Of a stretch of 64,000 bases of DNA, positions 19,393-64,000 are shown piece by piece. Source of the DNA: Streptomyces sp. ICC1. GTDB taxonomy: Bacteria; Actinomycetota; Actinomycetes; Streptomycetales; Streptomycetaceae. The notes under the pieces were generated by a model. That model was not told the DNA's origin. It ran no database searches and worked only from the letters and a program-made list of their open reading frames with translations. The position numbers and the translations under genes were made by a program. The DNA lies in NCBI RefSeq assembly GCF_003287935.1, contig NZ_CP030287.1, positions 806,001 through 870,000 of the forward strand, in the 5' to 3' direction. Each line of letters begins with the position of its first letter. Positions within the stretch are counted from its first letter, which is position 1.

Positions 19393-19395
19393 GAG

Positions 19396-35720: not shown

Positions 35721-35739
35721 TAAGGTAAGCCTCACCTAA
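35721..35739 (-). promoter_or_regulatory. Iron box (DmdR1/IdeR operator)
   Basis: Read on the minus strand the site is TTAGGTGAGGCTTACCTTA. It matches the actinobacterial iron-box consensus TTAGGTTAGGCTAACCTAA at about 16 of 19 positions and retains the dyad. It lies 15 bases upstream of the DUF2470 start, overlapping where a repressor would block transcription, and only 23 bases from the divergent rpsD start. Confidence 0.85.
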
Positions 35740-35761
35740 CTTACATGGAGGTAGGTTCCAC

Positions 35762-36373: not shown

Positions 36374-36400
36374 TCCAGCGGACGTAGCCTCACAGGCTGG

Positions 36401-38629: not shown

Positions 38630-38795
38630 GGGACACGGAGGGTACTGGTCCGGATGCTCTGCGTACAAGGCGGACTCCGCCCGGCCGCGGGCCGGGGCGC
38701 GGCCGGGAATTCCGGTACTTCGGCGGATCTCCGGCGCGATAGGGTCGGAGGACGACTTTTTCGCTTGCTGATCAATGTGTAGAGAGCGGTGTGAC

Positions 38796-39236: not shown

Positions 39237-39244
39237 GACCGCCG

Positions 39245-39619
39245 ATGTTCCGCCGAGCCTTCTGGTTCACCGCAGGCGCAGCCGCCGGCGTGTGGGCCAC
39301 CACCAAGGTCAACCGCCAGCTCAAGAAGCTGACACCGGAGAGCCTCGCCGCCCAGGCCGCCGACAAGGCGCTGGAAGCGGGCCACCGCCTCAAGGACTTC
39401 GCCCTCGACGTCAAGGCGGGAATGTCGCAGCGCGAGGACGAGCTGAACGACGCACTGGGGCTCCACCAGGACCCCGACCTGCCCGGCAACGTCAGCGCCC
39501 TTCCCGGGCCGCGGCGGCTGCGGGCCATCGCGCACGACCCGTACGACAAGCAGGACCAGACCACCACTCACCGCTCGAGCCGCTCGAGGGGCAAGTACAA
39601 CCGGAATGAGGACCACTGA
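39245..39619 (+). CDS. DUF6167-like small protein upstream of alaS
   Basis: 124 residues starting [20 protein letters not shown], one weak transmembrane or signal-anchor segment, then a charged helical region and a hydrophilic Arg/Ser/His tail. I recall this as the streptomycete DUF6167 family; no function is known. The stop overlaps the alaS ATG (TGATG), so the pair with the DUF948 gene is probably co-transcribed with alaS. Confidence 0.8.
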
Positions 39620-42288: not shown

Positions 42289-42758
42289 TGACGCTGCGCC
42301 GCGGCCGCCGGCTGGCCATCGACGTCGGGGACGCCCGGATCGGGGTCGCCTCGTGCGACCCCGACGGGGTGCTGGCCACACCGGTGGAAACCGTGCCGGG
42401 CCGGGACATCCCCTTCGCCCACCGGCGGCTGCGGCAGCTCGTCGAGGAGTACGACCCCATCGAGGTGGTGGTCGGTCTGCCCCGTTCGCTCAGCGGGCGG
42501 GAGGGGCCGGCCGCGGCCAAGTGCCGCGCCTTCGCCATGGAACTCGCCAAGGGCATCAAGCCCGTGACGGTGCGTCTGGTGGACGAGCGGATGACGACGG
42601 TCACCGCGGCCCAGGGCCTGCGGGCCTCGGGGCGCAACGCCAAGAAGGGCCGGTCCGTCATCGACCAGGCGGCCGCCGTGGTCATCCTGCAGAACGCCCT
42701 GGAGACCGAACGGGTATCAGGTAATCCGCCCGGTGAGTGCGTCGAAGTGGTTGTCTGA
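42288..42758 (+). CDS. ruvX: Putative pre-16S rRNA nuclease / RuvC-like (YqgF, RuvX)
   Basis: 156 residues with the RNase H-like fold: DVGDARIGVA near the N-terminus (first Asp), VVGLPRSLSGREGP, LVDERMTTV and KGRSVIDQAAAVVILQ (last Asp). Family members process the 5' end of 16S rRNA in E. coli. Start overlaps the alaS stop as TGATG. The order alaS-ruvX-mltG-aroE is conserved. Confidence 0.93.
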   Translation: MTLRRGRRLAIDVGDARIGVASCDPDGVLATPVETVPGRDIPFAHRRLRQLVEEYDPIEVVVGLPRSLSGREGPAAAKCRAFAMELAKGIKPVTVRLVDERMTTVTAAQGLRASGRNAKKGRSVIDQAAAVVILQNALETERVSGNPPGECVEVVV

Positions 42759-42883
42759 TCGCGATACGGTAACGTTCCGCGCGAAGTGACGGCATTCGAA
42801 CAGCCGTCGCCCACCAAGAGGCGGAACCGGGTGTCGCGGCGGATGGAGTCGCGGCCAACGCCCTGCGGCGCGCTAGGGGATCG

Positions 42884-44638: not shown

Positions 44639-44644
44639 CAGGAC

Positions 44645-45469
44645 ATGTCACGGATACGGGCCGCGGTGCTGGGTTCGCCCATCGAGCACTCCCTCTCGCC
44701 GGTGCTGCACCGCGCCGCGTATCAGGAGCTCGGCCTCGCCGACTGGTCGTACGACCGGTTCGAAGTCGACGAGGCCGCGCTCCCGGACTTCATCGCCGGG
44801 CTCGGCCCGGAATGGGCCGGCCTGTCGCTGACCATGCCGCTCAAGCGGGCGATCATCCCGCTGCTCGACGGGATCAGTGACACGGCCGCCTCGGTCGAGG
44901 CGGTCAACACGGTCGTGTTCACCGAGGACGGCCGCCGCGTCGGCGACAACACCGACATCCCCGGTCTGCTCTCCGCCCTCGCCGAACAGGGCGTGGGCAA
45001 GGTGGAGTCCGCCGCGATCCTCGGCGCCGGCGCCACCGCCTCCTCGGCGCTCGCCGCGCTCGCGCGGATCTGCTCCGGCGAGGTGACCGCGTACGTACGC
45101 TCCTCCGCCCGCGCCGCCGAGATGCGGGAGTGGGGCGAGCGGCTCGGCGTGGACGTCCGCACGGCCGACTGGTCGCGGGCGGCCGAGGCGCTGGCCGCGC
45201 CGCTGGTCATCGCGACCACCCCGGCCGGAGCCACGGACGAGCTGGCCGGCTCCGTTCCCACGGCCCCGGGCACCCTCTTCGACGTGCTGTACGACCCCTG
45301 GCCCACCGCGCTGGCCGCCGCCTGGTCCGGCCGCGGCGGCAAGCTCCTCGGCGGCCTGGACCTGCTGGTCCACCAGGCCGTGCTGCAGGTCGAGCAGATG
45401 ACCGGCAGCCCCGCGGCGCCCCTGGCGGCCATGCGGGCCGCCGGAGAGCGGGCCCTCGCCGCCCGATAG
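44645..45469 (+). CDS. aroE: Shikimate dehydrogenase
   Basis: 274 residues. Substrate motif SPIEHSLSPVLHRAAY (about 10-25), catalytic Lys in LTMPLKRA (about 65), and NADP-binding loop AILGAGATASSALAAL (about 122-137). It reduces 3-dehydroshikimate in aromatic amino-acid synthesis. It starts six bases after mltG with AGCAGGAC upstream and opens the aroE-orf-aroC-aroK-aroB set. Confidence 0.93.
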   Translation: MSRIRAAVLGSPIEHSLSPVLHRAAYQELGLADWSYDRFEVDEAALPDFIAGLGPEWAGLSLTMPLKRAIIPLLDGISDTAASVEAVNTVVFTEDGRRVGDNTDIPGLLSALAEQGVGKVESAAILGAGATASSALAALARICSGEVTAYVRSSARAAEMREWGERLGVDVRTADWSRAAEALAAPLVIATTPAGATDELAGSVPTAPGTLFDVLYDPWPTALAAAWSGRGGKLLGGLDLLVHQAVLQVEQMTGSPAAPLAAMRAAGERALAAR

Positions 45470-45507
45470 GCTTCCCGGTCGGGACAACGGGGACCTTGGG
45501 GGGCCAA

Positions 45508-45699
45508 GTGGACGAGATCGGCACGGATCAGGTGTTGGCGTCGAGGTGGGACGCCGCGTACGCGGTGGGTCTCTTCTTCCGCAGCCTGCTCAGCTCGTGG
45601 CCGCTCTGGGTCAAGCTGACCATCGGCGCCCTGGTGGGTGGCGCGGTCTGCTGGGAGGGCTACCGGTGGTGGTCCCGGCGCCGGTCCGCCGTCCGATAG
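45508..45699 (+). CDS. Small single-pass membrane protein between aroE and aroC
   Basis: 63 residues from a GTG at 45508 preceded by GGGGGG. One transmembrane segment (about 31-49, WPLWVKLTIGALVGGAVCW) is followed by a basic, Trp/Arg-rich end WEGYRWWSRRRSAV. Coding bias is good and the position sits within an otherwise aromatic-pathway operon. It could be a prepilin-peptidase-region leftover or an independent microprotein; no family is recognised. Confidence 0.6.
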   Translation: MDEIGTDQVLASRWDAAYAVGLFFRSLLSSWPLWVKLTIGALVGGAVCWEGYRWWSRRRSAVR

Positions 45700-45812
45700 C
45701 TGGACCGAGGGCGGTGTACCGGCGCGGACATGGGAGGATCGGGTGAAGGCGGGTCCGGGCCGCGCACCCGGTCGCGCCGTCGCTGAATCAGGCGCGAGCA
45801 TGAGGAGCATCG

Positions 45813-46997
45813 TTGAGCAGGTTGCGTTGGCTGACGGCCGGGGAATCGCACGGCCCGGCTCTGGTAGCGACGCTGGAGGGGCTTCCCGCCGGCGTTCCGG
45901 TCACCACTGAGCTGGTGGCCGACCACCTGGCCCGGCGCCGGCTCGGCTACGGCCGCGGTGCCCGGATGAAGTTCGAGCAGGACGAGATCACGTTCCTCGG
46001 CGGTGTCCGCCACGGTCTGTCCCTCGGTTCCCCGGTCGCCGTGATGGTGGGCAACAGCGAGTGGCCCAAGTGGGAGACGGTCATGTCGGCCGACCCGGTC
46101 GACCCCTCGCTGCTCAAGGACACCGGCCGCAACGCGCCGCTCACCCGGCCGCGTCCCGGCCACGCCGACCTCGCCGGCATGCAGAAGTACGGCTTCGACG
46201 AGGCCCGGCCGATCCTGGAGCGCGCCAGCGCCCGTGAGACCGCCGCCCGCGTGGCCCTCGGTGCCATCGCCCGGTCCTTCATCAAGGAGGTCGCCGGCAT
46301 CGAGATCGTCTCCCACGTCGTGGAACTGGCCGCCGCCAAGGCCCCGTACGGCGTCTACCCGACCCCCGCCGACGTCGAGAAGCTCGACGCCGACCCGGTG
46401 CGCTGCCTCGACGCCGACGCGTCGAAGGCGATGGTCGCGGAGATCGACCAGGCCCACAAGGACGGCGACACCCTCGGCGGCGTCGTCGAGGTGCTCGCCT
46501 ACGGCGTGCCCGTCGGCCTCGGCTCGCACGTGCACTGGGACCGCCGCCTCGACGCGCGCCTCGCGGCCGCGCTCATGGGCATCCAGGCCATCAAGGGCGT
46601 CGAGGTCGGCGACGGCTTCGACCTGGCCCGCGTACCCGGCTCGCAGGCGCACGACGAGATCGTCTCCACCCCCGAGGGCCTGCGGCGCACCTCCGGCCGC
46701 TCCGGCGGCACCGAGGGCGGTCTGACCACCGGTGAACTGCTGCGCGTCCGCGCCGCCATGAAGCCGATCGCGACCGTGCCGAAGGCCCTCGCGACCGTCG
46801 ACGTGGCGACCGGCGAGGCCACCGTCGCGCACCACCAGCGCTCCGACGTCTGTGCCGTGCCCGCCGCGGGCATCGTCGCCGAGGCCATGGTCGCCCTGGT
46901 GCTGGCCGACGCCGTCGTCGAGAAGTTCGGCGGCGACTCCGTCCCCGAGACCCGCCGCAACGTGCGGTCGTACCTCGACAACCTGCAGATCCGGTGA
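45813..46997 (+). CDS. aroC: Chorismate synthase
   Basis: 394 residues beginning [20 protein letters not shown], the signature of the family, with further FMN and EPSP-binding motifs [15 protein letters not shown] (about 290-305) and [15 protein letters not shown]. It converts EPSP to chorismate and needs reduced FMN. The TTG at 45813 is chosen because GAGGAGCATCG precedes it and the next residues are conserved. The stop overlaps aroK as GTGA. Confidence 0.96.
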
Positions 46998-47524
46998 CCG
47001 CCGCCCCCGCGACCGGCCCCCTGGTCGTCCTCGTCGGCCCCATGGGATCCGGCAAGTCCACCGTGGGCGAGATCGTCGCGCACCGGCTCGGCGTCTCCTA
47101 CCGGGACACCGACGCCGACATCGTCGCGGCCCAGGGCCGGGAGATCTCCGACATCTTCGTGGACGAGGGCGAGCCCTACTTCCGTGCGCTGGAGCGGGAG
47201 GCCGTCGCGGCCGCCGTCGCCGGGCACGACGGAGTCCTCGCCCTCGGCGGCGGCGCGATCCTCGACGAGGAGACGCGCGCCCTGCTGGCCGGGCTGCCCG
47301 TCGCCTACCTCTCGATGGACGTGGAGGAAGCCGTACGGCGCGTGGGCCTCGGCGCCGCGCGCCCGCTGCTCGCCGTCAACCCGCGCCGCCAGTGGCGCGA
47401 GCTGATGGAGGCCAGGCGCCCCCTGTACACCGAAGTCGCGCGCGTCGTGGTGGCCACCGACGACCGCACCCCCGAAGAGGTCGCGCAGGCGGTCCTCGAC
47501 GCTCTGGAGTTGAAGAACGCATGA
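46994..47524 (+). CDS. aroK: Shikimate kinase
   Basis: 176 residues, P-loop kinase with [11 protein letters not shown] (about 15-25), Asp pair in RDTDADIV that binds shikimate, and [11 protein letters not shown]. It phosphorylates shikimate at O3. Start and stop both overlap neighbours (GTGA and ATGA), placing it firmly in the aroC-aroK-aroB operon. Confidence 0.96.
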
Positions 47525-48612
47525 CAGACCAGGTGACGCGGATCCAGGTCGGCGAGAGCGCCGGGCACGACGCGTACGAGGTGCTGGTCGGCCGGCAGCT
47601 GCTCGGCGAGCTGGGCTCCCTGATCGGCACGAAGGCCCAGCGGGTCGCGGTCATCCACCCGGAGGCCCTGGCCTCGACCGGGGAGGCGCTGCGCGACGAC
47701 CTCGCGGCGCAGGGCTACGAGGCCGTCGCCATCCAGGTGCCGAACGCCGAAGAGGCCAAGACGATCGAGGTCGCGGCGTACTGCTGGAAGGCCCTGGGGC
47801 AGTCCGGCTTCACCCGCACCGACGTCATCGTCGGCGTCGGCGGGGGAGCCACCACCGACCTCGCGGGCTTCGTCGCGGCCTCCTGGCTGCGCGGCGTGCG
47901 CTGGATCGCCGTGCCGACCACCATCCTGGCGATGGTGGACGCGGCCGTCGGGGGCAAGACGGGCATCAACACCGCCGAGGGCAAGAACCTCGTCGGCGCC
48001 TTCCACCCGCCGGCCGGCGTGCTCTGCGACCTGGCAGCGCTGGAGTCGCTGCCGGTCAACGACTACGTCAGCGGCCTCGCCGAGATCATCAAGGCCGGAT
48101 TCATCTCCGACCCGGTGATCCTCGACCTGATCGAGGAGGACCCGGAGGCGGCCCGCACGCCCGCCGGCCCGCACACGGCCGAGCTGATCTGCCGCTCCAT
48201 CCAGGTCAAGGCGGACGTGGTCTCCAGCGACCTCAAGGAGGCGGGGCTGCGGGAGGTCCTGAACTACGGGCACACGCTCGCGCACGCCATCGAGAAGAAC
48301 GAGCGCTACAAGTGGCGGCACGGCGCGGCCGTTTCGGTCGGCATGCTCTTCGCGGCCGAGCTCGGCCGGCTGGCGGGCCGCCTCGACGACGCGACGGCGG
48401 ACCGGCACAAGGCGGTCCTCGCCTCGGTGGGGCTGCCGCTGACCTACCGCGGCGACCAGTGGCCCAAGCTGCTGGAGACGATGAAGCTCGACAAGAAGTC
48501 CCGGGGCGACCTGCTGCGCTTCATCGTCCTGGACGGGCTGGCCAAGCCGACCGTCCTGGAGGGCCCGGACCCGGCCGTCCTCGTGGCGGCGTTCGGCGAA
48601 GTCACGGCCTGA
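47521..48612 (+). CDS. aroB: 3-Dehydroquinate synthase
   Basis: 363 residues. NAD-binding motif VGVGGGATTDLAGFVAASW (about 102-120), metal ligands in EIIKAGFI (Glu), LNYGHTLAHAIE (His) and KWRHGAAVSVG (His). It makes 3-dehydroquinate from DAHP. ATG at 47521 overlaps the aroK stop. Confidence 0.96.
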   Translation: MTDQVTRIQVGESAGHDAYEVLVGRQLLGELGSLIGTKAQRVAVIHPEALASTGEALRDDLAAQGYEAVAIQVPNAEEAKTIEVAAYCWKALGQSGFTRTDVIVGVGGGATTDLAGFVAASWLRGVRWIAVPTTILAMVDAAVGGKTGINTAEGKNLVGAFHPPAGVLCDLAALESLPVNDYVSGLAEIIKAGFISDPVILDLIEEDPEAARTPAGPHTAELICRSIQVKADVVSSDLKEAGLREVLNYGHTLAHAIEKNERYKWRHGAAVSVGMLFAAELGRLAGRLDDATADRHKAVLASVGLPLTYRGDQWPKLLETMKLDKKSRGDLLRFIVLDGLAKPTVLEGPDPAVLVAAFGEVTA

Positions 48613-48708
48613 TCGGGGCCTTCGCTTGATCGAGTGACCCGCCGGAGCTCCCGGGTCATATAACGTTCTCGCATCAGTCGGGCCGGAACGGGACGGGGTT
48701 GGCAGCGG

Positions 48709-49476
48709 ATGCAGCACGGAGTGGGTGGCGGGAGCTGGGATCCGTCGGGGCGTCAGCACTCGGCGGCGCCCCCGCAGCCGCCGGTCCCCCCGGCGCAGGG
48801 CTGGCCCGTTTCCCCGGTGCCCGCGCCCGCGTCCCTGCCCGTCCGGCATCCCGGGGCCCCCGGGATGCCGGACGGGTCCACCGGGCACATCCCGCTGCCG
48901 CCCGCCGTCGCGGGCACCGGCGGAGCCACCCTCGCGGTGCTGCTGATCGGTCCCGCGGGCGCCGGCAAGACCACCGTGGCCCGCCACTGGGCGGCCACCC
49001 GGCCGGTCCCCACGGCGCACGTCAGCCTGGACGACGTACGGGAATGGGTGTGCTCGGGGTTCGCGGACCCGCAGGCCGGCTGGAACGACCACTCCGAGGC
49101 CCAGTATCGCCTCGCCCGCCGCACCTGCGGCTTCGCCGCCCGCAACTTCCTGGCGAACGGCATCTCCTGCATCCTCGACGACGCGGTCTTCCCCGACCGC
49201 CCCGTGGTGGGCCTCGGCGGCTGGAAGCGCCACGTCGGGCCCGCGCTGCTGCCCGTCGTCCTGCTGCCCGGCCTGGAGATAGTCCTGGAGCGCAACGCGG
49301 CCCGCTCCGGGAACCGGCGGCTCTCCGACGAGGAGGTCGCGCGGATCCACGGCCGCATGGCGGGCTGGTACGGATCCGGGCTGCCGATCATCGACAACTC
49401 CCACCTGGACGTCGAGGGCACCGCCCGCGCCCTGGACGAGACCCTGGCCCGCGCCATCTCGGCGCCGGCCCACTGA
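48709..49476 (+). CDS. P-loop kinase/ATPase of the zeta/T4-PNK-like group
   Basis: 255 residues. A 70-residue Pro/Gly-rich leader precedes a P-loop domain: Walker A LIGPAGAGKTTVARHWAATR (about 79-98), Asp in SLDDVREW, and ERNAARSG and GRMAGWYGSGLPIIDNS in the lid and C-terminal region. This pattern resembles the AAA_33 / zeta-toxin-like nucleotide kinases, but no antitoxin gene accompanies it, so I do not call a toxin. TATAAC near 48660 may be the -10 box. A 39-bp palindrome falls within the leader codons; a downstream Met at residue 53 is a possible alternative start. Confidence 0.78.
   Translation: MQHGVGGGSWDPSGRQHSAAPPQPPVPPAQGWPVSPVPAPASLPVRHPGAPGMPDGSTGHIPLPPAVAGTGGATLAVLLIGPAGAGKTTVARHWAATRPVPTAHVSLDDVREWVCSGFADPQAGWNDHSEAQYRLARRTCGFAARNFLANGISCILDDAVFPDRPVVGLGGWKRHVGPALLPVVLLPGLEIVLERNAARSGNRRLSDEEVARIHGRMAGWYGSGLPIIDNSHLDVEGTARALDETLARAISAPAH
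48838..48876. repeat. 39-bp palindrome inside the kinase leader
   Basis: CCCGTCCGGCATCCCGGGG and its exact reverse complement are separated by one base. The sequence is within the reading frame and encodes part of the Pro/Gly-rich leader, so the mRNA can fold into a strong hairpin 130 bases past the start. Confidence 0.9.
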
Positions 49477-49548
49477 AGCCCGGGCCCGCTGAAGCCCCGG
49501 CCCACTGAAGCCCCGGCCCGCTGAGGCCCCGGCCCTCCGAAGCCCCGG
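49469..49548. repeat. 16-bp tandem repeat, five copies
   Basis: Consecutive 16-bp units starting at 49469, 49485, 49501, 49517 and 49533 follow CCCACTGAAGCCCCGG with one to three changes each. The first unit spans the stop codon of the kinase gene, and the array fills most of the 135-bp gap before the aminopeptidase gene. Confidence 0.9.
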
Positions 49549-49611
49549 CCGCGTCCTCGTACGGCCGCGCTCACCAGGCCGGATGCGCCCGCCGCTCGTA
49601 GGCTCGGAAGC

Positions 49612-50721
49612 ATGTCAGACGTGTACGCGGCCCGCCGGGGCCTGCTTCGCGACCGCTGTGCGGCCGCCGGAAACGCCGCCGCACTCATCACGCGTCCGGC
49701 GAACGTCCGCTACCTCTCCGGGGCGTCGCCGCTGGGCGCCGTCCTGCTGGTCGGACCGGGCGGGGAGGACATGCTGTTCTGCGCCGGGCAGCCCACCGGG
49801 GAGGCCGACGAGGGACGGCTCGACGAGAACCTGCGGATCTCCGTGCTGGCGGGCCCGGGAGCCGATCCCGCCGTCGCCGCCGCCGACCTCGCCGCTTCCG
49901 CGCGCGCCGACTCCCTCGCCGTCGAGGAGCACCACCTCACCGTGGGCCGGCACCGCGCCCTGCGCTCCGTGGCGCCCGGACTGCGCCTCGCCGACCTCGG
50001 GACCGCCGTCGAGCAGCAGCGCCTCGTCAAGGACGAGGAGGAGATCGCCTGCCTGCGGATCGCCGCCGAGATCGCCGACCAGGCCCTCGGCGAGCTGCTG
50101 GAGTCGATCCTGGTGGGCCGCACCGAGCGGCACCTCGCCCTGGAGCTCGAACGCCGCCTCGTGGACCACGGGGCGGACGGCCCGGCCTTCCCGACCTCCG
50201 TCGGCACGGGTCCGCACTCCGGTCGCTCCCGGCACCGGCCCTCCGACCGACGGGTGGAGGAGGGCGACTTCCTCTCCGTCTGCCTCGGCGCGAACTACCG
50301 GGGCTACCGCTGCGAGATCGGCCGGACCTTCGTCATCGGCACGACCCCCGCCGACTGGCAGATCGAGCTGTACGACCTCGTGTTCGCCGCCCAGCGGGCG
50401 GGCCGCGAGGCCCTGATGCCCGGGGCCGCCTACCGAGACGTGGATCACGCCGCCCGTTCCGTGCTGGACTCCGCGGGACACGGGGAGGCCCTCGCGGCGT
50501 GGACCGGACACGGCGTCGGTCTCGAAATCGACGAGGACCCGCAGCTTGCACCTACGGCCATGGGTAAACTGGACGCTTGCGTGCCGGTCACCGTCGAACC
50601 GGGGGTTCACCTCCCGGGCCGGGGCGGTGTCAGGATCGATGACACGCTCGTCGTACGCCCCGAGGCGGACGGCGGTCCCGAGCTACTCACCATTACGACC
50701 AAGGAGCTGCTCGCGCTCTAG
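49612..50721 (+). CDS. M24-family Xaa-Pro aminopeptidase-like protein
   Basis: 369 residues. Pita-bread fold with an N-terminal creatinase-like domain (1-130) and catalytic half starting [20 protein letters not shown]. Metal-binding residues are partly visible: [20 protein letters not shown] where the family usually has D-x10-D, then [12 protein letters not shown] and [17 protein letters not shown]. The first acidic ligand appears replaced by Cys/Leu context, so activity should not be assumed. Position before efp is conserved in actinobacteria. Confidence 0.87.
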
Positions 50722-50780
50722 CCCGCATCGCCGGGCTGTGCGCGCACCCGTGGTCTTCCAGTGCAGGAGATTCCCAAACC

Positions 50781-51347
50781 GTGGCTTCCACGAACGACCT
50801 CAAGAACGGCATGGTGCTGAAGCTCGACGGGGGCCAGCTCTGGTCCGTCGTCGAGTTCCAGCACGTCAAGCCCGGCAAGGGCCCGGCCTTCGTGCGCACC
50901 AAGCTGAAGAGCGTCATGTCCGGCAAGGTCGTCGACAAGACGTTCAACGCCGGCACCAAGGTCGAGACGGCCACCATCGACCGCCGCGACATGCAGTTCT
51001 CCTACATGGACGGCGAGTACTTCGTCTTCATGGACATGGAGGACTTCGACCAGCTGATGGTCGACAAGAAGGCCGTCGGCGACTCCGCCAACTTCCTGAT
51101 CGAGGGCTTCACCGCCTCCGTGGCCCGCCACGAGGGCGAGGTGCTCTACGTAGAGCTCCCGGCCGCCGTCGAGTTGACCATCCAGCACACGGACCCGGGC
51201 GTCCAGGGCGACCGCTCCACCGGCGGCACCAAGCCGGCGACGCTGGAGACCGGCCACGAGATCCAGGTCCCGCTCTTCATCAACACGGGCGAGAAGATCA
51301 AGGTCGACACCCGCACCAGCGACTACCTCGGCCGGGTGAACAGCTAA
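50781..51347 (+). CDS. efp: Elongation factor P
   Basis: 188 residues, three beta barrels. The ribosome-facing loop is [15 protein letters not shown], with Lys33 at the tip, and the C-terminal signature is [20 protein letters not shown]. It relieves stalling at polyproline motifs. GTG at 50781 follows GCAGGAGA by ten bases. It lies two bases before nusB. Confidence 0.97.
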
Positions 51348-51349
51348 CC

Positions 51350-51787
51350 GTGGCTGCCCGGAGCAACGCGCGCAAGCGCGCTTTCCAGATCCTGTTCGAG
51401 GCCGACCAGCGCGACGTGTCCGTGCGCGAGGTCCTCGCGGACTGGATCCGCCACTCGCGGTCGGACACCGACCGCCAGCCCGCGGTGAACGAGTTCACCA
51501 TGGAACTCGTCGAGGGGTACGCCGACAAGGTGGACCGCATCGACGATCTGATCGCCACCTACGCGGTGGACTGGGACCTGGACCGCATGCCGGTCGTGGA
51601 CCGGAACATCGTGCGCCTCGGTGCCTACGAGCTGATCTGGGTGGACGACACCCCGGACGCCGTGGCGATCGATGAGGCCGTCCAGCTGGCCAAGGAGTTC
51701 TCCACGGACGAGTCGCCCTCGTTCGTGAACGGACTGCTCGGCCGCTTCAAGGACCTCAAGCCGAAGCTGCGTCGCAGCGAGAGCTGA
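51350..51787 (+). CDS. nusB: Transcription antitermination factor NusB
   Basis: 145 residues, all-helical, with RSNARKRAFQILFEADQR at the N-terminus and NIVRLGAYELIWVDDTPD, FVNGLLGRF in the C-terminal half. It binds boxA with NusE during rRNA transcription. The GTG at 51350 follows the efp stop at once, so efp-nusB is a two-gene unit ended by a very strong hairpin. Confidence 0.95.
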   Translation: MAARSNARKRAFQILFEADQRDVSVREVLADWIRHSRSDTDRQPAVNEFTMELVEGYADKVDRIDDLIATYAVDWDLDRMPVVDRNIVRLGAYELIWVDDTPDAVAIDEAVQLAKEFSTDESPSFVNGLLGRFKDLKPKLRRSES

Positions 51788-51806
51788 CCCGCGCCGGACC
51801 GGCGCG

Positions 51807-51850
51807 GACGAAAGGGCCCGCAGCGCACGCGCGCTGCGGGCCCTTTCGTC
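51807..51850 (+). terminator. Hairpin terminator after nusB
   Basis: GACGAAAGGGCCCGCAGCGC and its perfect 20-base complement are separated by four bases, starting 19 bases past the nusB stop. Confidence 0.93.
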
Positions 51851-51860
51851 GTGCCGGTCC

Positions 51861-51900
51861 GGGTCGTGCCGGGTCGTGCCGGGTCGTGCCGGGTCGTGTC
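51861..51900. repeat. 10-bp tandem repeat, four copies
   Basis: GGGTCGTGCC is repeated exactly three times, with a fourth copy differing by one base, between the nusB and bldD terminators. No coding role. Confidence 0.85.
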
Positions 51901-51945
51901 GGCCCGGGCCGGCTGGGTCCGCGGATCCGGGACGGGACGCAAAAG

Positions 51946-51992
51946 ACCGGCGGGGCGCCGGGGGCCTCTCGGCTCCCCGGCGCCCCGCCGGT
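51946..51992 (-). terminator. Hairpin terminator after bldD
   Basis: ACCGGCGGGGCGCCGGGG pairs perfectly with CCCCGGCGCCCCGCCGGT around an 11-base loop, 40 bases downstream of the minus-strand bldD stop. Confidence 0.88.
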
Positions 51993-52031
51993 AACGTTTC
52001 TGCTGGGCCTGGGCCCGGTAACACCGTCGGA

Positions 52032-52532
52032 CTAGATGTCCTCGTGCGCCACCGCACGACGCGCGTCCGCGTCCAGCACGCCCCAGCTGATCAGCTGCTC
52101 GGTCAGGACCGAGGGGGACTGGTCGTAGATGACGGCGAGGGTGCGCAGGTCGTCCTGGCGGATCGAGAGCACCTTGCCGTTGTAGTCGCCGCGCTGGCTC
52201 TGGATGGTCGCCGCGTAACGCTGCAGCGGGCCGGCCTTCTCCGCGGGGACGTGGGCCAGGCGCTCCAGGTCCAGGCGCAGCTTCGGCGGCGGCTCGGCCG
52301 CTCCGCCGGGGGTCGTTCCCGGCAGCAGTTCCTGCACCGGAACCCCGTAGAAGTCCGCCAGCTCGGCAAGGCGCTGGACGGTCACGGCGCGGTCCCCGCG
52401 CTCGTAGGAACCGACCACCACGGCCTTCCAACGGCCCTGGGACTTCTCCTCGACACCATGGAGGGAAAGGCCCTGCTGGGTGCGGATGGCGCGGAGCTTG
52501 GCCCCGAGCTGTTTGGCGTATTCGCTGGACAT
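52032..52532 (-). CDS. bldD: Developmental master regulator BldD
   Basis: 166 residues, near-identical to the well-known streptomycete protein as I remember it. The N-terminal XRE-type helix-turn-helix covers about 1-79 (KLRAIRTQQGLSLHGVEEKS), and the C-terminal domain carries the c-di-GMP-binding RGD...RQDD signature (RGDYNGKVLSIRQDD). With c-di-GMP it dimerises and represses sporulation genes during vegetative growth. ATG 52532 begins MSSEYAKQLGAKL. It is divergent from pyrR, and a BldD-like site lies in its own upstream region. Confidence 0.97.
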   Translation of the reverse strand: MSSEYAKQLGAKLRAIRTQQGLSLHGVEEKSQGRWKAVVVGSYERGDRAVTVQRLAELADFYGVPVQELLPGTTPGGAAEPPPKLRLDLERLAHVPAEKAGPLQRYAATIQSQRGDYNGKVLSIRQDDLRTLAVIYDQSPSVLTEQLISWGVLDADARRAVAHEDI

Positions 52533-52640
52533 AACGCTCCCGGACGCTGTGCGCTGTGACGGCATGGACGCTGTGACGACATGAACGCTTTGGCGACATG
52601 GCCCACGTGATGGACCACGTGCGGCTCCGCCGCGCGGCTC

Positions 52641-52660
52641 GTAACTCACTGTGAGGTTAC
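52641..52660 (-). promoter_or_regulatory. Candidate BldD autoregulatory operator
   Basis: GTAACTCACTGTGAGGTTAC is a near-perfect dyad containing TCAC and GTGA half-sites like the BldD box (AGTGA-n-TCACC type). It lies about 110 bases upstream of bldD, and BldD is known to repress its own gene. A second GTTAC-n6-GTTAC motif follows. Confidence 0.55.
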
Positions 52661-52777
52661 GCAGCGTTACTTGGATGCGTCAAGCCGAATGGTCCGCGAC
52701 GCCCACGGACGAGGGGTCCCGGGCCGCCCCGGTGCGGGCCCCGGGGAATCCCCCTGGTACCGTGGAACGCGTAGATC

Positions 52778-53429
<652 letters not shown>

Positions 53430-53546
53430 CCCTGCCGGAGCCGGACCCCCCCGGGGGTCCGCGCGCCGAAGCCTGCCCTGCCACACCCCAGCCCGCCCGT
53501 CTGCCCTCCCCACACCGCTGCCCTCACCGACGTACGGAGAACCCGG

Positions 53547-54548
53547 ATGAAGCGCCACCTCATCTCGGCCGCCGATCTCACGCGCGACGACGCCGTCCTG
53601 ATCCTCGACACCGCCGAGGAGATGGCGCGCGTCGCGGACCGGCCGATAAAGAAGCTGCCCACCCTGCGCGGCCGCACGATCTGCAACCTCTTCTTCGAGG
53701 ACTCGACCCGCACCCGGATCTCCTTCGAGGCCGCCGAGAAGCGCCTGTCCGCCGATGTGATCAACTTCGCGGCGAAGGGCTCCAGCGTCTCCAAGGGCGA
53801 GTCCCTCAAGGACACCGCCCAGACCCTGGAGGCCATGGGCGTCGACGCGGTCGTCATCCGGCACCACGCCTCCGGCGCCCCCTACCGCCTCGCGACCTCC
53901 GGCTGGATCGACGCCCCGGTCATCAACGCCGGTGACGGCACCCACGAGCACCCCACCCAGGCCCTGCTCGACGCCTTCACCATGCGCCGCCGCCTCGTCG
54001 GCAAGGACGCCGGGCTCGGCAAGGACCTGAACGGCCGCCGGATCACCATCGTCGGCGACGTCCTGCACAGCCGGGTCGCCCGCTCCAACGTCCAGCTGCT
54101 GCACACCCTGGGCGCCGAGGTCACCCTGGTGGCCCCGCCCACCCTGGTGCCCGTCGGCGTCGAGGCCTGGCCGTGTGAGATCTCGTACAGCCTGGACGAG
54201 GTGCTGCCGAAGTCCGACGCCGTGATGATGCTGCGCGTGCAGCGCGAGCGGATGAACGCCGCCTTCTTCCCGACCGAGCGCGAGTACTCCCGCCGCTACG
54301 GCCTGGACGGCGCCCGGATGGCCCGGATGCCCGAGCACGCCATCGTGATGCACCCCGGCCCGATGGTCCGCGGCATGGAGATCACCGCCGAGGTCGCCGA
54401 CTCCGACCGCTGCACGGTCATCGAGCAGGTCACCAACGGCGTCTCCATCCGGATGGCCGTCCTGTACCTGCTGCTCGGGGGCTCCGAGCCCGCCGTCACC
54501 ACCAGCACCGCCAGCACCACCGCCGCCCGCACCGAGGAGACGAAGTAA
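53547..54548 (+). CDS. pyrB: Aspartate carbamoyltransferase catalytic chain
   Basis: 333 residues. Carbamoyl-phosphate site [18 protein letters not shown] (about 52-69), [14 protein letters not shown] (about 134-147), and the Asp-binding region [10 protein letters not shown]. No regulatory pyrI is present. It makes carbamoyl aspartate. The C-terminal tail is Ala/Thr/Ser-rich and probably disordered. ATG 53547 follows ACGGAGAACCCGG. Confidence 0.96.
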
Positions 54549-54550
54549 AG

Positions 54551-55837
54551 ATGAGCAAGATCCTGATCCGTGGCGCGAAGGTACTCGGTGGCGAGGCGCA
54601 GGACGTCCTGATCGACGGCGAGACCATCGCCGCCGTGGGCGCGAACCTGGACGCCGGCGACGCGACGGTCATCGAGGCCCAGGGCCAGACCCTCCTCCCG
54701 GGCCTCGTCGACCTCCACACCCACCTGCGCGAGCCCGGCCGCGAGGACTCCGAGACCGTCCTCACCGGCACCCGCGCCGCCGCCTCCGGCGGCTACACCG
54801 CCGTCTTCGCCATGGCCAACACCTTCCCCGTCGCCGACACCGCCGGCGTCGTCGAGCAGGTGTGGCGCCTGGGCAAGGAGTCCGGCTACTGCGACGTGCA
54901 GCCCATCGGCGCCGTCACCGTCGGCCTGGAGGGCAAGAAGCTCGCCGAGCTTGGCGCCATGCACGAGTCCGCCGCCCGCGTCACCGTCTTCTCCGACGAC
55001 GGCAAGTGCGTGGACGACGCCGTGATCATGCGCCGCGCCCTGGAGTACGTGAAGGCCTTCGGCGGCGTCGTCGCCCAGCACGCCCAGGAGCCCCGCCTCA
55101 CCGAGGGCGCCCAGATGAACGAGGGCGTCGTCTCCGCCGAGCTCGGCCTCGGCGGCTGGCCCGCCGTCGCCGAGGAGTCGGTCATCGCCCGCGACGTGCT
55201 GCTCGCCGAGCACGTCGGCTCCCGCGTGCACATCTGCCACCTCTCCACCGCCGGCTCCGTCGAGATCGTCCGCTGGGCCAAGTCCCGCGGCATCGACGTC
55301 ACCGCCGAGGTCACCCCGCACCACCTGCTCCTCACCGACGAGCTCGTGCGCTCGTACAACCCGGTCTACAAGGTCAACCCGCCGCTGCGCACCGAGCGCG
55401 ACGTGCTGGCCCTGCGCGAGGCGCTCGCCGACGGCACGATCGACATCGTCGCGACCGACCACGCCCCGCACCCCCACGAGGACAAGGACTGCGAGTGGGC
55501 CGCGGCCGCCATGGGCATGGTGGGCCTGGAGACCGCGCTCTCCGTCGTCCAGCAGACGATGGTGGAGACCGGACTGCTCGACTGGGCGGGCGTCGCCGAG
55601 CGGATGTCCTTCGCCCCGGCGCGCATCGGCGGCCTCCCGAACCACGGACGCCCCGTCTCGGCAGGTGAACCCGCGAACCTGACCTTGGTCGATACCTCGT
55701 ACCGTGGTGTCGTGGACCCCGCACACTTCGCCTCCCGCAGCCGCAACACGCCTTACGAGGGCCGTGAGCTGCCGGGGCGCGTCACTCACACCTTCCTGCG
55801 GGGCCGGGCAACGGTCGTGGACGGGAAACTGGCGTGA
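54551..55837 (+). CDS. pyrC: Dihydroorotase
   Basis: 428 residues, amidohydrolase type I. Metal ligands in [19 protein letters not shown] (about 55-73), [10 protein letters not shown] (His), [11 protein letters not shown] (His) and [10 protein letters not shown] (Asp). The usual carboxylated Lys is not present in an obvious position and an Asp in [10 protein letters not shown] may take its place, as in the class I group. Two bases after pyrB. Confidence 0.96.
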
Positions 55838-56418
55838 CACCTGCAGTGATCCAACTGGCCGCCGAGGCCGCCGAACGACAGTCGGCGGAGGTGACGGACT
55901 GGGGCGCCCGCATCGCGTGGGTGATCGGTCTGCTCGTCTTCATCGCGTTCGTGTACTGGCTGATGCGGCAGGGCTGGAAATGGCGCGGCACCCTGCAGAG
56001 CGATCTGCCGGAGCTGCCCGCCGCCCCCAGCGGCCTCCCGGCGCACCGGCTGGCCCTGACCGGCCGGTACCACGGGTCCACCACCGCCGGGCAGTGGCTC
56101 GACCGGATCGTCGCCCACGGGCTGGGGGTCCGCAGCCGGGTCGAGCTCACGCTCACCGACGCGGGCCTCGACGTGGTCCGTCCGGGTGCCACCGACTTCT
56201 TCGTACCGGCCGCGCAACTGCGCGGCGCCCGCCTCGACAAGGGAATCGCGGGCAAGGTACTCACCGAGGGCGGTCTCCTCGTCGTCACATGGGCGCACGG
56301 CGACAGGCTGATCGACTCCGGATTCCGCTCCGACCGCGCGGCCGAACACGCCGCCTGGGTCGAAGCGATCAACCTCATGAACCACTCAATCACCACGACG
56401 GAAGGCGCCGAACGATGA
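55834..56418 (+). CDS. Membrane-anchored PH-like protein embedded in the pyr operon
   Basis: 194 residues with one transmembrane helix (about 27-45, [19 protein letters not shown]) and a C-terminal domain (about 75-190) resembling a bacterial PH-like barrel ([20 protein letters not shown] ... WVEAINLMN). It overlaps pyrC (GTGA) and carA (ATGA), so it is co-translated with pyrimidine enzymes although it has no catalytic motif. It is conserved here in Streptomyces as far as I recall; its role is unknown. Confidence 0.82.
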
Positions 56419-57570
56419 CGACCTCCACCAGGGGAGCAGCCAAAGCTCCCGCCGTACTCGTCCTGGAGGACGGTCGGATCTTCCGCGGCCGCGCCTACGG
56501 CGCTGTGGGGGAGACCTTCGGCGAGGCCGTGTTCTCCACCGGCATGACCGGCTACCAGGAGACCCTCACCGACCCGTCGTACCACCGGCAGGTCGTCGTG
56601 ATGACCGCCCCGCACGTGGGCAACACCGGCGTCAACGACGAGGACTCCGAGTCCTCCCGCATCTGGGTCGCCGGATACGTCGTGCGCGACCCCGCGCGCG
56701 TCCCCTCGAACTGGCGCTCGCGCCGCTCGCTGGACGAGGAGCTCGTCAAGCAGGGCGTCGTCGGGATCTCCGGCATCGACACCCGCGCCCTGACCCGCCA
56801 CCTGCGCGAGCGCGGCGCCATGCGCGTCGGCATCTTCTCCGGCGAGGCCTGGGACGGCGTCCGTGACGAGGCGCTGCTCGCCAAGGTGCGCACCGCCCCG
56901 CAGATGAAGGGCGCCAACCTCGCCGCCGAGGTCGCCACCAAGGAGGCGTACGTCGTCCCCGCGATCGGTGAGAAGAAGTTCACCGTCGCCGCCGTGGACC
57001 TCGGCATCAAGGGCATGACCCCGCACCGGATGGCCGAGCGCGGCATCGAGGTGCACGTGCTCCCCGCCACCGCCACCGTCGAGGACGTGTACGCGGTCAA
57101 CCCCGACGGCGTGTTCTTCTCCAACGGCCCGGGCGACCCGGCCACCGCAGACGGCCCCGTCGCGGTCATGCAGGCCGTACTGGCCCGCAAGACCCCGCTC
57201 TTCGGCATCTGCTTCGGCAACCAGATCCTGGGCCGCGCGCTCGGCTTCGGCACGTACAAGCTGAAGTACGGCCACCGCGGCATCAACCAGCCGGTGCAGG
57301 ACCGCACCACCGGCAAGGTCGAGATCACCGCGCACAACCACGGCTTCGCCGTGGACGCGCCCCTCGACAAGGTCTCCGAGACCGCCTACGGCCGCGCCGA
57401 GGTCTCCCACGTGTGCCTGAACGACCAGGTCGTCGAAGGCCTCCAGCTGCTCGACCAGCCGGCCTTCTCCGTCCAGTACCACCCCGAGGCGGCTGCCGGC
57501 CCGCACGACGCCGCGTACCTCTTCGACCGCTTCACGTCTTTGATGGAAACCGCCCAGATGGAGGCCGATC

Positions 57571-57578
<8 letters not shown>
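56415..57578 (+). CDS. carA: Carbamoyl-phosphate synthase small (glutaminase) subunit
   Basis: 387 residues. Class I amidotransferase domain with nucleophile Cys in [11 protein letters not shown] (about residue 269) and His-Glu in [11 protein letters not shown] near the C-terminus; the N-terminal half is the CarA-specific domain. It supplies ammonia to CarB for both pyrimidine and arginine synthesis. It overlaps the PH-like gene and the carB start (by eight bases). Confidence 0.97.
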
Positions 57579-60879
<3,301 letters not shown>

Positions 60880-60920
60880 ATCCCGGCGAGGACCGACAAG
60901 CCCGTACGGCCCGTAGAGGG

Positions 60921-60964
60921 GAGGGGGACACCGTCCAGCGCGAAGCGCGACGGTCGTCCCCCTC
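60921..60964 (+). terminator. Imperfect hairpin between carB and pyrD
   Basis: GAGGGGGACACCGTC and GACGGTCGTCCCCCTC pair apart from a one-base bulge. It may attenuate pyrD-pyrF expression rather than end the operon, since pyrD follows within 40 bases. Confidence 0.6.
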
Positions 60965-61003
60965 TTCATGAGCTTCATGAGCGCACAAGGGAACCCCTGC
61001 ACG

Positions 61004-62113
61004 ATGTACAAACTCTTCTTCGACCTGGTCTTCAAGCGGATGGACCCGGAGCAGGCCCACTACATGGCCTTCCGCTGGATCCGCCTCGCCGCCCGCACGC
61101 CGGTCCTGCGCACCTTCGTCGCCGCCTTCCTGGCACCCCGGTACGCATCGCTGCGCACCGAGGCCCTCGGCCTGCGGATGCACGGCCCCTTCGGGCTCGC
61201 GGCCGGCTTCGACAAGAACGCCGTCGCCATCGACGGGATGTCGATGCTCGGCTTCGACCACATCGAGATCGGCACGGTCACGGCCCAGGCCCAGCCGGGC
61301 AACCCGAAGAAGCGGCTGTTCCGGCTGGTGCCGGACCGTGCGCTGATCAACCGCATGGGCTTCAACAACGAGGGTTCGGCGGCCGTGGCGGACCGCCTGG
61401 CCGCCCGCAACCCGGTCTTCAAGACCGTCGTCGGCGTCAACATCGGCAAGACGAAGGTCGTGCCCGAGGAGGAGGCCGTCGCCGACTACGTCGCCTCCAC
61501 CGAGCGCCTCGCCCGCCACGCCGACTACCTGGTCGTCAACGTCTCCTCCCCGAACACCCCGGGACTGCGCAACCTCCAGGCGACCGAGTCGCTGCGCCCG
61601 CTGCTGAGCGCCGTACGGGAAGCCGCGGACCGCGCCGTCACCGACCGCCGGGTCCCGCTGCTCGTCAAGATCGCCCCGGACCTCGCGGACGAGGACGTGG
61701 ACGCGGTCGCCGACCTGGCCCTGGAGCTGGGCCTGGACGGCATCATCGCCACGAACACCACCATCGCCCGCGACGGCCTCGGTCTGAAGTCCTCCCCGTC
61801 CCTGGTCAAGGAGACCGGCGGACTGTCCGGCGCCCCCGTCAAGGAGCGCTCGCTGGAGGTCCTGCGCCGGCTGTACGCCCGCGTCGGCGACCGGCTGGTC
61901 CTGGTCGGCGTCGGCGGCATCGAGAACGCCGAGGACGCCTGGCAGCGGATCCTGGCCGGCGCGAGCCTGGTCCAGGGCTACAGCGCCTTCATCTACGAGG
62001 GCCCCTGCTACGCCCGCGCCATCCACAAGGGCCTGGCCGCGCGCCTGGCCGCCAGCCCGTACGCGACCCTCGCCGACGCGGTGGGCGCCGAAACCCGAAA
62101 GGCCGCGCTGTGA
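61004..62113 (+). CDS. pyrD: Dihydroorotate dehydrogenase, quinone-dependent (class 2)
   Basis: 369 residues. The N-terminal extension ([20 protein letters not shown]) is the class 2 membrane-association region. FMN-site motifs are NRMGFNNEG (about 116-124) and [14 protein letters not shown] (about 177-190, Ser catalytic), then [13 protein letters not shown]. The ATG at 61004 gives the usual class 2 N-terminus; an upstream ATG at 60968 has no ribosome site. It transfers electrons to quinone at the membrane. Confidence 0.93.
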
Positions 62114-62952
62114 GCCCTGTGATCCCGTTCGGTACCCGCCTGCGCGAGGCGATGGACACCCGCGGTCCGCTGTGCGTGGGCATCGACCCGCACGCGGCGC
62201 TGCTGGCCTCGTGGGGCCTGGACGACGACATCGCGGGCCTGGAGAAGTTCTCCCGCACGGTCGTCGAGGCGCTGGCCGACTCGGTGGCGGTCTTCAAGCC
62301 GCAGGCGGCGTTCTTCGAGCGGTTCGGGTCCAAGGGCGTCGCGGTGCTCGAGCAGACCGTGGCCGACGCCCGGGCGGCGGGCACGCTGGTCGTCATGGAC
62401 GCCAAGCGGGGCGACATCGGCTCGACGATGGCCGCGTACGCGCAGACCTTCCTGTCGCCGTCCTCGCCGCTCTTCTCCGACGCGCTGACCGTCTCCCCGT
62501 ACCTGGGCTACGGCTCGCTGAAGCCGGCGGTCGACCTGGCCCGCGAGTCGGGGGCCGGCCTGTTCGTCCTGGCCCTGACCTCCAACCCGGAGGGCGCGGA
62601 GGTCCAGCGGGCCGTGCGGTCGGACGGCCGGACGATCGGCGCGACGATGCTCGGGCACCTGGCGGCGGAGAACGCGGGCGCCTCCCCGATGGGCTCGTTC
62701 GGAGCCGTCGTGGGCGCGACCCTCGGGGACCTGTCCTCCTTCGACCTGGACATCAACGGGCCGCTGCTGGCCCCCGGCATCGGCGCGCAGGGCGCGACGG
62801 CGGCGGACCTCCCGGCGGTCTTCGGCGCGGCCGTCCGCAATGTCGTGCCGAACGTGTCGCGGGGCGTGCTGAAGCACGGACCCGACGCGGGTGCGTTGCG
62901 CGGCGCGGCGGAGCGGTTCGCGGACGAGATCCGCGCGGCCGTCTCGGCCTGA
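62110..62952 (+). CDS. pyrF: Orotidine 5'-phosphate decarboxylase (type 2)
   Basis: 280 residues with the active-site motif [16 protein letters not shown] (about 97-112), typical of the longer type 2 enzymes, and [10 protein letters not shown] near the N-terminus. It makes UMP. GTG at 62110 overlaps pyrD as GTGA. Last recognisable gene before the adapter-derived junction; the integration host factor gene expected next in Streptomyces is missing, in line with a contig break. Confidence 0.95.
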
Positions 62953-63009
62953 CCCACGCGTTGCCGGGCGCCCGCGCAGGGGCGTACGGCCCTGGGGGTC
63001 GGGGCGTTC

Positions 63010-63080
63010 CTGTCCCTTAGACACATCTCCGAGGAAGTAACACGGAGAGGAGAGGCGGCAGCGTCAGATGTGTATAAGAG
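63010..63080. other. Nextera transposase adapter residue (assembly artefact)
   Basis: Bases 63056-63080 are identical to the Nextera read-1 adapter over 25 bases: CGGCAGCGTC directly followed by the mosaic end AGATGTGTATAAGAG. Bases 63010-63033 match the other side, CTGTCTCTTATACACATCT followed by CCGAG, at 22 of 24 positions. Between them is noisy sequence. This is library adapter, not a natural Tn5 insertion. Confidence 0.95.
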
Positions 63081-63093
63081 CCGGCGGTAGGCG

Positions 63094-63181
63094 CTGAGGC
63101 CCGAGGACGGGAACGAGGAAGGGCCACCGCCCCGCAGCCGCGGGGCGGTGGCCCTTCCTCGTTCCCGTCCTCGGGCCTCAG
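63094..63181. repeat. 42-bp perfect inverted repeat, probably a foldback read artefact
   Basis: Bases 63094-63135 are the exact reverse complement of 63140-63181, leaving a four-base loop, and the arm extends through the catalase stop codon. The inner part (about GGGCCACCGCCCCG with its mate) may be the real catalase terminator. The outer part, directly attached to adapter residue, is best explained by a foldback read. Confidence 0.75.
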
Positions 63182-64000
63182 CCGGAGACCGCCGCCGCGA
63201 TCCGGTCGCCGAGCGCCTTGTCCACGTTGCGCCAGTACCGCACGGCCCGCTCCAGGACCGGGGCGCTGACCCCGTCCAGCAGGTGCCCGCTGATGTTCGA
63301 CACCAGCCGGTCGCGGGCCGCATCGTCCAGCACCTCGCGGACCATCGTGCCGGGCTGCCCCCAGTCGTCGTCCGCGCTGTGCAGGCCGTACGCCTCGCGG
63401 ACCATCTCGCCCGCCGAGGCCCAGCCGGCCGGCTCGCCGAAGCGGGCCGTGTCCGCCGCGGGGCCGCCGTAGGAGTTGGGCGCGTACGGGCGGGCCGCGG
63501 CCGAGGCCTCGAAGCGCATCGCACCGTCCTTGGAGTACGAGGAGACGAGCGAGCGGGCCCGGTTGGGCGGCAGTTGCGCGTAGTTGGCGCCGATCCGGTA
63601 GCGGTGCGTGTCCGGATACGAGAACAGCCGGCCCAGCAGCATCTTGTCCGGCGACGGACCGATGCCCGGCACCAGGTTCGAGGGCTCGAAGGCGGCCTGC
63701 TCGATGTGGATGAAGTAGTCCGCCGGGTTCTTGTCGAGGGTCATCCGCCCGACCTCGATCAGCGGGTGGTCGGCGTGCGGCCACACCTTGGTCAGGTCGA
63801 AGGGGTTGAAGCGGTAGCCGGCCGCGTCCTCGAAGGGCATCACCTGGATCCACAGGGTCCAGCTCGGCGGCTCACCGCCCGCGATCGAGTCGAACAGGTC
63901 CCGCCGGTGGCGGTCGGGGTCCTCGCCGGCGATCCGGTCGGCATCGGCCTGCGTCAGGAACTCGATGCCCTGGTCCGTCTTGAAGTGGTACTTCACCCAG
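63178..64000 (-). CDS. Monofunctional haem catalase, C-terminal part
   Basis: About 274 residues of the 3' portion are present and the N-terminus lies beyond base 64000. The proximal haem ligand Tyr is in the motif RLFSYPDTHRYRIGANYAQLP-like stretch (read as RLFSYPDTHRYRIG, then ANYAQLP), preceded by YFIHIEQAAFEPSNLVPGIG. It belongs to the small-subunit clade (KatA-like). It degrades hydrogen peroxide. Because an adapter junction precedes its 3' flank, its adjacency to pyrF is not real evidence of linkage. Confidence 0.93.
   Translation of the reverse strand, partial: WVKYHFKTDQGIEFLTQADADRIAGEDPDRHRRDLFDSIAGGEPPSWTLWIQVMPFEDAAGYRFNPFDLTKVWPHADHPLIEVGRMTLDKNPADYFIHIEQAAFEPSNLVPGIGPSPDKMLLGRLFSYPDTHRYRIGANYAQLPPNRARSLVSSYSKDGAMRFEASAAARPYAPNSYGGPAADTARFGEPAGWASAGEMVREAYGLHSADDDWGQPGTMVREVLDDAARDRLVSNISGHLLDGVSAPVLERAVRYWRNVDKALGDRIAAAVSG

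What the first reader, a model, noticed from the sequence alone, without database searches (positions are those of the whole stretch)
63010..63080. Sequencing adapter embedded between pyrF and catalase
Twenty-five consecutive bases match the Nextera read-1 adapter (ending AGATGTGTATAAGAG), and 22 of 24 match the opposite adapter end. No natural DNA should carry both. The sequence therefore joins two contigs falsely, and gene order across this point is unsupported. The expected neighbour of pyrF in Streptomyces (integration host factor gene) is absent, in line with a false join.
Basis: partly seen in the sequence, partly recalled or inferred. Interest (0 to 1): 0.75.

Follow-up and report, generated by a model that had tools for sequence, protein, structure and literature searches.

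The report
Adapter-marked false joins in pseudo-chromosome
The odd sequence between pyrF and the catalase gene is leftover Illumina Nextera adapter at a false join, one of many in a Streptomyces "single chromosome" that appears to be several hundred draft contigs glued end to end in order of size, so gene order across these points means nothing.

Summary
In detail: window 63010-63033 is the Nextera read-2 adapter (22/24) and 63056-63080 the read-1 adapter (25/25), facing each other. The false-join reading is right, and the problem is far larger. The 9.03 Mb one-contig assembly carries 145 such sites; 38 of 60 relatives have none, and relatives with many are drafts. The spacings between 134 known joints shrink along the coordinate as whole multiples of an ever smaller contig length: about 700 contigs concatenated longest first. 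This pointed to a second join in the window at 7461-7513, confirmed by homology. Homology also proves the pyrF join false: in four Streptomyces relatives the pyrF-side DNA continues after 0.47-0.88 kb into pyrK-pyrD(1B)-mIHF, which here lies 7.2 Mb away on a contig that begins inside pyrK. All 87 distinct mosaic-end copies counted have at least 2 mismatches, as expected of adapters that escaped a trimmer allowing one. An artefact; it matters for data quality only.

The parts
7461..7513 (-). Second adapter remnant (read-1 adapter, reverse complement, then an 8-nt index and GTGTAG): end of the preceding contig and joint before the contig that starts at 7514
   Evidence: 24 of 33 bases of the read-1 oligo, next best place in the window 20; sequence; homology to three relatives starts at 7514
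7514..8063 (-). N-terminal part (about 180 codons) of an EF-G-like GTPase gene cut by the joint; the C-terminal part lies at C1:2,008,523
   Evidence: Pfam GTP_EFTU; open frames of 756-759 aa in three relatives
7514..63033 (.). One contig of about 55.5 kb, from the joint at 7513 to the joint at 63034
57571..60879 (+). carB
   Evidence: NF003671, 1616 bits, cut-off 599
60968..62113 (+). pyrD, class 2 (quinone-dependent)
   Evidence: NF003648, 561 bits, cut-off 433; TIGR01036, 419 bits, cut-off 200
62110..62952 (+). pyrF, last gene before the false join
   Evidence: TIGR02127, 280 bits, cut-off 110.6
62953..63009 (+). Last 57 native bases after pyrF at the end of the left contig
   Evidence: alignment to TBY4 reaches 62979
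63010..63033 (-). Nextera read-2 adapter remnant, reverse complement on the + strand
   Evidence: 22 of 24 bases
63034..63055 (.). Joint between the two contigs lies in here; probably degraded index and P5 adapter
   Evidence: weak
63056..63080 (+). Nextera read-1 adapter remnant at the start of the right contig
   Evidence: 25 of 25 bases
63093..63182 (.). Perfect 43-nt inverted repeat with a 4-nt loop that reaches the catalase stop codon: natural terminator or fold-back read
   Evidence: relatives
63178..64000 (-). Catalase gene of the right contig, continuing beyond the window
   Evidence: Pfam PF00199, 614 bits, on the whole gene in L071

Best explanation
The span is the butt joint of two contigs from a Nextera-type Illumina library. 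Short inserts let reads run through into the opposite adapter; adapter copies with no or one error were trimmed away, copies with two or more errors stayed and ended up at contig ends. About 700 contigs were then concatenated longest first, without regard to gene order, into one 9.03 Mb pseudo-chromosome. Shown here: adapter identity, genome-wide recurrence, the shrinking-length ladder, the misplacement of pyrF's true neighbour, the split EF-G-like gene, the lower bound of 2 mismatches. Inferred: read-through, the trimmer, the deliberate concatenation and the exact number of contigs.
For: Adapter match and orientation. 145 sites against 1 for the control in the own genome, 62 read-1-type and 42 read-2-type against 0; in eight draft relatives 50 of 51 plus-strand hits lie at contig starts. 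Spacing against position, Spearman -0.73; 7 neighbouring spacings equal within 1% against 0.68 in shuffles. Fewest contigs needed for a never-rising length: 699, against at least 8321 in 1000 shuffles and 2224 in 1000 block shuffles (tolerance 200). Two boundaries placed by homology alone, at C1:8,095,595-8,102,081 and C1:2,008,523, fall on the ladder. True order pyrF-pyrK-pyrD1B-mIHF in four Streptomyces. EF-G-like gene in two places. No mosaic end with 0 or 1 mismatch among 87 distinct copies. Same index TAGGCATG after the adapter at two joints and a poly-A run at one of them.
Against: The contig count rests on a tolerance of 150 bp or more (699 at 150, 200 and 250; 1135 at 100) and on one joint position chosen after seeing a misfit (1057 without it at tolerance 200; still below every shuffle). 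The greedy fit always finds some solution, so only the comparison with shuffles is informative. Searches list only part of the sites (one search lists 100 of 145). Raw reads were not available. The first 516 kb hold no listed site. The true neighbour of the catalase was not found.
Confidence: 0.96

Rival explanations
1. Adapter left in a gap between two contigs that are truly adjacent: contamination without a wrong gene order.
For: Reference-guided scaffolding of adapter-bearing contigs would leave such remnants, and a few joints have N runs beside them.
Against: Close relatives continue from pyrF into DNA that lies 7.2 Mb away here; a gene is split over 1.2 Mb; contig length shrinks along the coordinate.
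Confidence: 0.02
2. Insertion of a Tn5-type transposon, natural or from laboratory mutagenesis, whose ends are the mosaic-end sequences.
For: The 19-nt mosaic end is the hyperactive Tn5 transposase site (recalled).
Against: The sequencing tails GGCAGCGTC and CCGAG sit beside the ends; only 22 bases lie between them, so no transposon body; well over a hundred mismatched copies in one genome; no target duplication seen by eye.
Confidence: 0.005
3. A natural rearrangement placed the catalase next to pyrF in this strain, and the adapter resemblance is coincidence.
For: Streptomyces genomes rearrange, and the three closest relatives lack this catalase.
Against: Chance expectation 0.01 per window; sites recur 145 times against 1 for the control; pyrK and an EF-G-like gene are cut at other joints.
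Confidence: 0.005

Closest known systems
Adapter read-through from short inserts in NexteraXT libraries (PMC3906532, passages seen)
   Same: Same oligos; reverse complement of the opposite adapter after the insert; index, then a run of A where the read passes the end of the fragment (L086).
   Different: The paper deals with reads and trimming; here the remnants survive inside a finished-looking assembly.
Adapter remnants at contig ends of draft genomes (G016, G031, G039, G040, G042, G044, G047, G049)
   Same: Same pattern and inward orientation, at contig starts for 50 of 51 listed plus-strand hits.
   Different: There the contigs were left apart; here they were joined, so the remnants are internal and create false neighbours.
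Tn5-type transposon end
   Same: The 19-nt mosaic end.
   Different: Sequencing tails beside it, no transposon body, mismatched copies throughout the genome.

Membership tests
Nextera adapter contamination | Mosaic end joined to the read-1 or read-2 tail, in the right order and orientation | tested here: met
   25 of 25 and 22 of 24 bases; oligos in PMC3906532
Nextera adapter contamination | Index and P7/P5 sequence or poly-A beyond the tail | tested here: inconclusive
   Clear at L085 and L086 and partly at window 7461; weak at 63034-63055
Nextera adapter contamination | Present in the raw reads and absent from the organism's DNA | not testable with these tools
   No reads available
Length-ordered concatenation of contigs | Joint spacings are whole multiples of a contig length that never rises along the sequence | tested here: met
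   699 contigs needed against at least 2224 in block shuffles (1057 without the adjusted joint; 1135 at tolerance 100)
Length-ordered concatenation of contigs | Boundaries without adapter, located by homology, fall on the same ladder | tested here: met
   6,487 bp contig at C1:8,095,595 where the ladder gives 6.26-6.71 kb; contig start at C1:2,008,523, 38.7 kb before the next adapter, where it gives 37.8-39.9 kb. Two tested, two met
Length-ordered concatenation of contigs | Genes cut at joints, their other parts elsewhere | tested here: met
   EF-G-like gene in two places 1.2 Mb apart; pyrK without its N-terminal part, the missing part not searched for
Tn5-type transposon insertion | Transposon body between intact ends | tested here: not met
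   22 bases between the ends; no copy with fewer than 2 mismatches among 87

The most novel reading that the evidence does not exclude
A species-representative genome counted as one contig and 100% complete is in fact about 700 draft contigs glued together longest first. Every large-scale order statement drawn from it (synteny, gene clusters spanning joints, position on the chromosome arms) would be void, the missing 0- and 1-mismatch adapters record the trimmer setting used, and the spacing ladder is a general test for such pseudo-chromosomes.
Probability: 0.93. Interest if true: 0.3.

Novelty: not a real feature. Interest (0 to 1): 0.2.

Why it matters
There is no biology in the adapter, but the genome is an entry that quality metrics rate as excellent (1 contig, completeness 100, contamination 1.19). 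Anyone using it for gene order, cluster boundaries, gene fusion or gene loss can be misled: this window alone shows a gene cut at one joint and a false neighbour at another. The ladder test (spacings of adapter remnants shrinking as whole multiples along the coordinate) is a simple way to detect such pseudo-chromosomes, and it located joints that carry no adapter.

Tried and rejected
Transposon insertion was rejected (sequencing tails, no body, dispersed mismatched ends). Adapter between truly adjacent contigs was rejected (synteny, ladder). Reference-guided ordering was rejected for the same reasons.

A simple story in which mIHF is just the lost neighbour had to be revised: in this assembly mIHF has a class-1B pyrD in front of it and no pyrF. 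This first looked like a second pyrimidine operon or a mixture of strains, but carB and mIHF gave one full match each and pyrF one match in the whole genome, and the named relatives show the order carB-pyrD(class 2)-pyrF-pyrK-pyrD(1B)-mIHF. Results aside from this: S. celluloflavus L129 matches only pyrK-pyrD1B and not the pyrF side within the flank held, and Kitasatospora phosalacinea (L132, L157) has pyrD1B between carB and pyrF. The relatives' PyrK scores below the NCBIfam cut-offs (best 149 bits, cut-off 314), so its name rests on two Pfam domains and its place beside pyrD.

The first fits of the ladder gave 1012 contigs (tolerance 80) and 1371 (a beam search whose cost favoured extra divisions); one joint had been placed at the wrong one of its two adapter copies. 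Searches show both treatments. A comparison with recalled Nextera index names was too weak to use. The count of mosaic ends took one joint twice; one search recounts by distinct position. The strain could not be named (one search found 0 papers for its length; one search says it may leave out the window's own genome). Papers: listings only; passages of PMC3906532.

Mended then: the four gap lengths (each one base less), the mosaic-end count (46, not 47, with 2 mismatches), the class of the window's pyrD (now tested), and the tolerance-100 result, which had been left out. The odds of the novel case went from 0.95 to 0.93 because of the last.

Full report
What is there. [quoted passage not shown] window 63056-63080 is identical over 25 bases to the read-1 oligo (oligos as printed in PMC3906532). 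Chance gives 0.01 mosaic ends with up to 3 mismatches per window; two were found. They face each other across 22 bases that are probably degraded index and P5 sequence (weak).

It is not local. The window is C1:806001-870000 of a one-contig assembly of 9,034,319 bases. AGATGTGTATAAGAG with up to 2 mismatches occurs there 145 times against 1 for the reversed pattern. With the tails included there are 62 read-1-type and 42 read-2-type sites at up to 3 mismatches, against 0 for the controls. Of 60 relatives searched with the same pattern, 38 have no site. The highest count among the others is 17, and those with ten or more are drafts: in the eight that I counted by hand (G016, G031, G039, G040, G042, G044, G047, G049) 50 of 51 plus-strand hits start within the first 112 bases of a contig, the exception being G042:C223:1493 (G044 has 5 sites, and G008 and G029 with 4 and 3 were not counted). 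So adapter remnants belong at contig ends, pointing inward. In the own genome six of seven joints with two remnants have the order end-then-start; the seventh is a tandem pair.

The remnants have a sharp lower bound. Over the window, the joint loci fetched and the last 400 kb of the assembly there are 87 distinct mosaic ends: 46 with 2 mismatches, 24 with 3, 11 with 4, 6 with 5, none with 0 or 1. In 220,463 bases of 58 relatives' loci there is none. A trimmer that tolerates one error in 19 bases would leave exactly this (inference). Six N runs of 26-47 bases in the 400 kb sit beside adapter remnants or poly-A, as if stronger matches had been masked; who masked them is unknown.

The order of contigs. 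The spacing between known joints shrinks along the coordinate (Spearman -0.73), and 7 neighbouring pairs of spacings agree within 1%, against 0.68 in shuffles and 2.4 in shuffles within blocks of 12 (p 0.004). Examples: 18136/18128, 12604/12613, 10184/10184, 1805/1842/1784. If contigs were concatenated longest first, each spacing must be a whole number of contigs of a length that never rises. A greedy fit always finds some answer, so the measure is how few contigs it needs. For the 133 spacings between 134 joints (133 from the sites listed, plus the one at window 7461) it needs 699 at a tolerance of 150, 200 or 250 bp, and 1135 at 100 bp. At 200 bp, 1000 shuffled orders need at least 8321 and 1000 block-shuffled orders at least 2224. 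One joint position (7,021,912 or 7,022,087, two remnants of one joint) was chosen after seeing a misfit; without that choice the fit needs 1057 and still beats every shuffle. The stretch before the first listed joint (516 kb) is outside the fit.

Tests of the ladder. The ladder says that the contig left of our joint is 55.1-63.8 kb long, so another joint should lie in the first 8 kb of the window. At 7461 there is a read-1 remnant (24 of 33 bases, next best place 20) followed by an 8-nt index and GTGTAG, and DNA of three relatives begins to align at exactly 7514, in 3 of 3. The hit at 7461 had already appeared in the scan, but I recognised it as a joint only through the ladder, and it was then added to the fit. 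It cuts an EF-G-like gene (open frames of 756-759 aa in three relatives) after about 180 codons; the C-terminal part is at C1:2,008,523, 38.7 kb before the adapter at 2,047,199, where the ladder runs from 39.9 to 37.8 kb. The contig that holds mIHF spans C1:8,095,595-8,102,081 by homology alone, 6,487 bp (three relatives end at the same base, a fourth 15 bases earlier). The ladder there gives 6.26-6.71 kb, and the rest of that interval divides into 6 x 6,596 and 3 x 6,455 bp (arithmetic by hand). Neither boundary carries an adapter in the stretch read.

Why the pyrF-catalase join is false. In 28 of 29 relatives' loci mIHF follows pyrF; the 29th ends at a contig edge, and the locus of a thirtieth relative was not fetched. 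In this assembly mIHF (NF041260) is at C1:8,097,352, behind a class-1B pyrD (NF005574, 346 bits, cut-off 269) and a pyrK-like gene that has the NAD-binding and iron-sulfur domains but lacks its N-terminal part. In Streptomyces sp. TBY4, AP-93, NRRL B-3428 and H27-H1 the DNA matching the window's carB-pyrD-pyrF side (85-95%) is followed after 583, 882, 594 and 473 bases by DNA matching the mIHF contig; in the first three that match begins at base 8595 of L070, the contig's first base. Of seven loci compared, six hold both sides; S. celluloflavus L129 shows only pyrK-pyrD1B. Nine of 30 genus relatives have a catalase homologue of 76% or better: three (G018, G022, G024) have it on the same contig as pyrF, 3.7-4.3 Mb away, and six on another contig. 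TBY4, AP-93 and H27-H1 have only paralogues of 50% or less, so the catalase's true neighbour stays unknown.

How it arose (inferred). Nextera libraries with short inserts give reads that run into the opposite adapter and past it into a run of A (PMC3906532, passages). The same signs are here: the same index after the adapter at L085 and L086, and poly-A at L086. Reads with a badly sequenced adapter escaped trimming and became contig ends. The assembler's list, usually sorted by length (recalled), was then written out as one sequence.

The hairpin at 63093-63182. The right contig starts with a perfect 43-nt inverted repeat that reaches the catalase stop codon. Of eight relatives' loci examined after close homologues of this catalase, six have a hairpin with arms of 14-23 nt, L040 one of 28 nt at 86%, L046 none. 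It may be a natural terminator that stopped the assembly, or a fold-back read; I lean to the second without proof.

Verdict. It is an assembly artefact; what deserves attention is its extent.

Noticed in passing
window 7461-8063: A second adapter-bearing joint, next to the tRNA-Ser at 7355-7440, cuts an EF-G-like GTPase gene; its C-terminal part is at C1:2,008,523.
   Followed up: yes
L070:8595-10106 (C1:8,095,595-8,097,106); L126, L127, L128, L168: A small Streptomyces clade carries a class-1B PyrK-PyrD pair between pyrF and mIHF in addition to the usual class-2 PyrD. No other match above 34% identity over most of the protein was seen in 60 sampled genus members; G069 has a 35-residue match at 66% close to its class-2 pyrD, perhaps a remnant.
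   Followed up: partly
own genome 8.63-9.03 Mb; L007, L080, L088: N runs of 26-47 bases sit directly beside adapter remnants or poly-A, as if a database screen had masked the better matches.
   Followed up: partly
window 63093-63182: Perfect 43-nt inverted repeat at the start of the right contig, longer than the hairpins after the same catalase in relatives.
   Followed up: partly
G016, G031, G039, G040, G042, G044, G047, G049: Eight unnamed draft relatives also carry Nextera remnants at contig starts.
   Followed up: no
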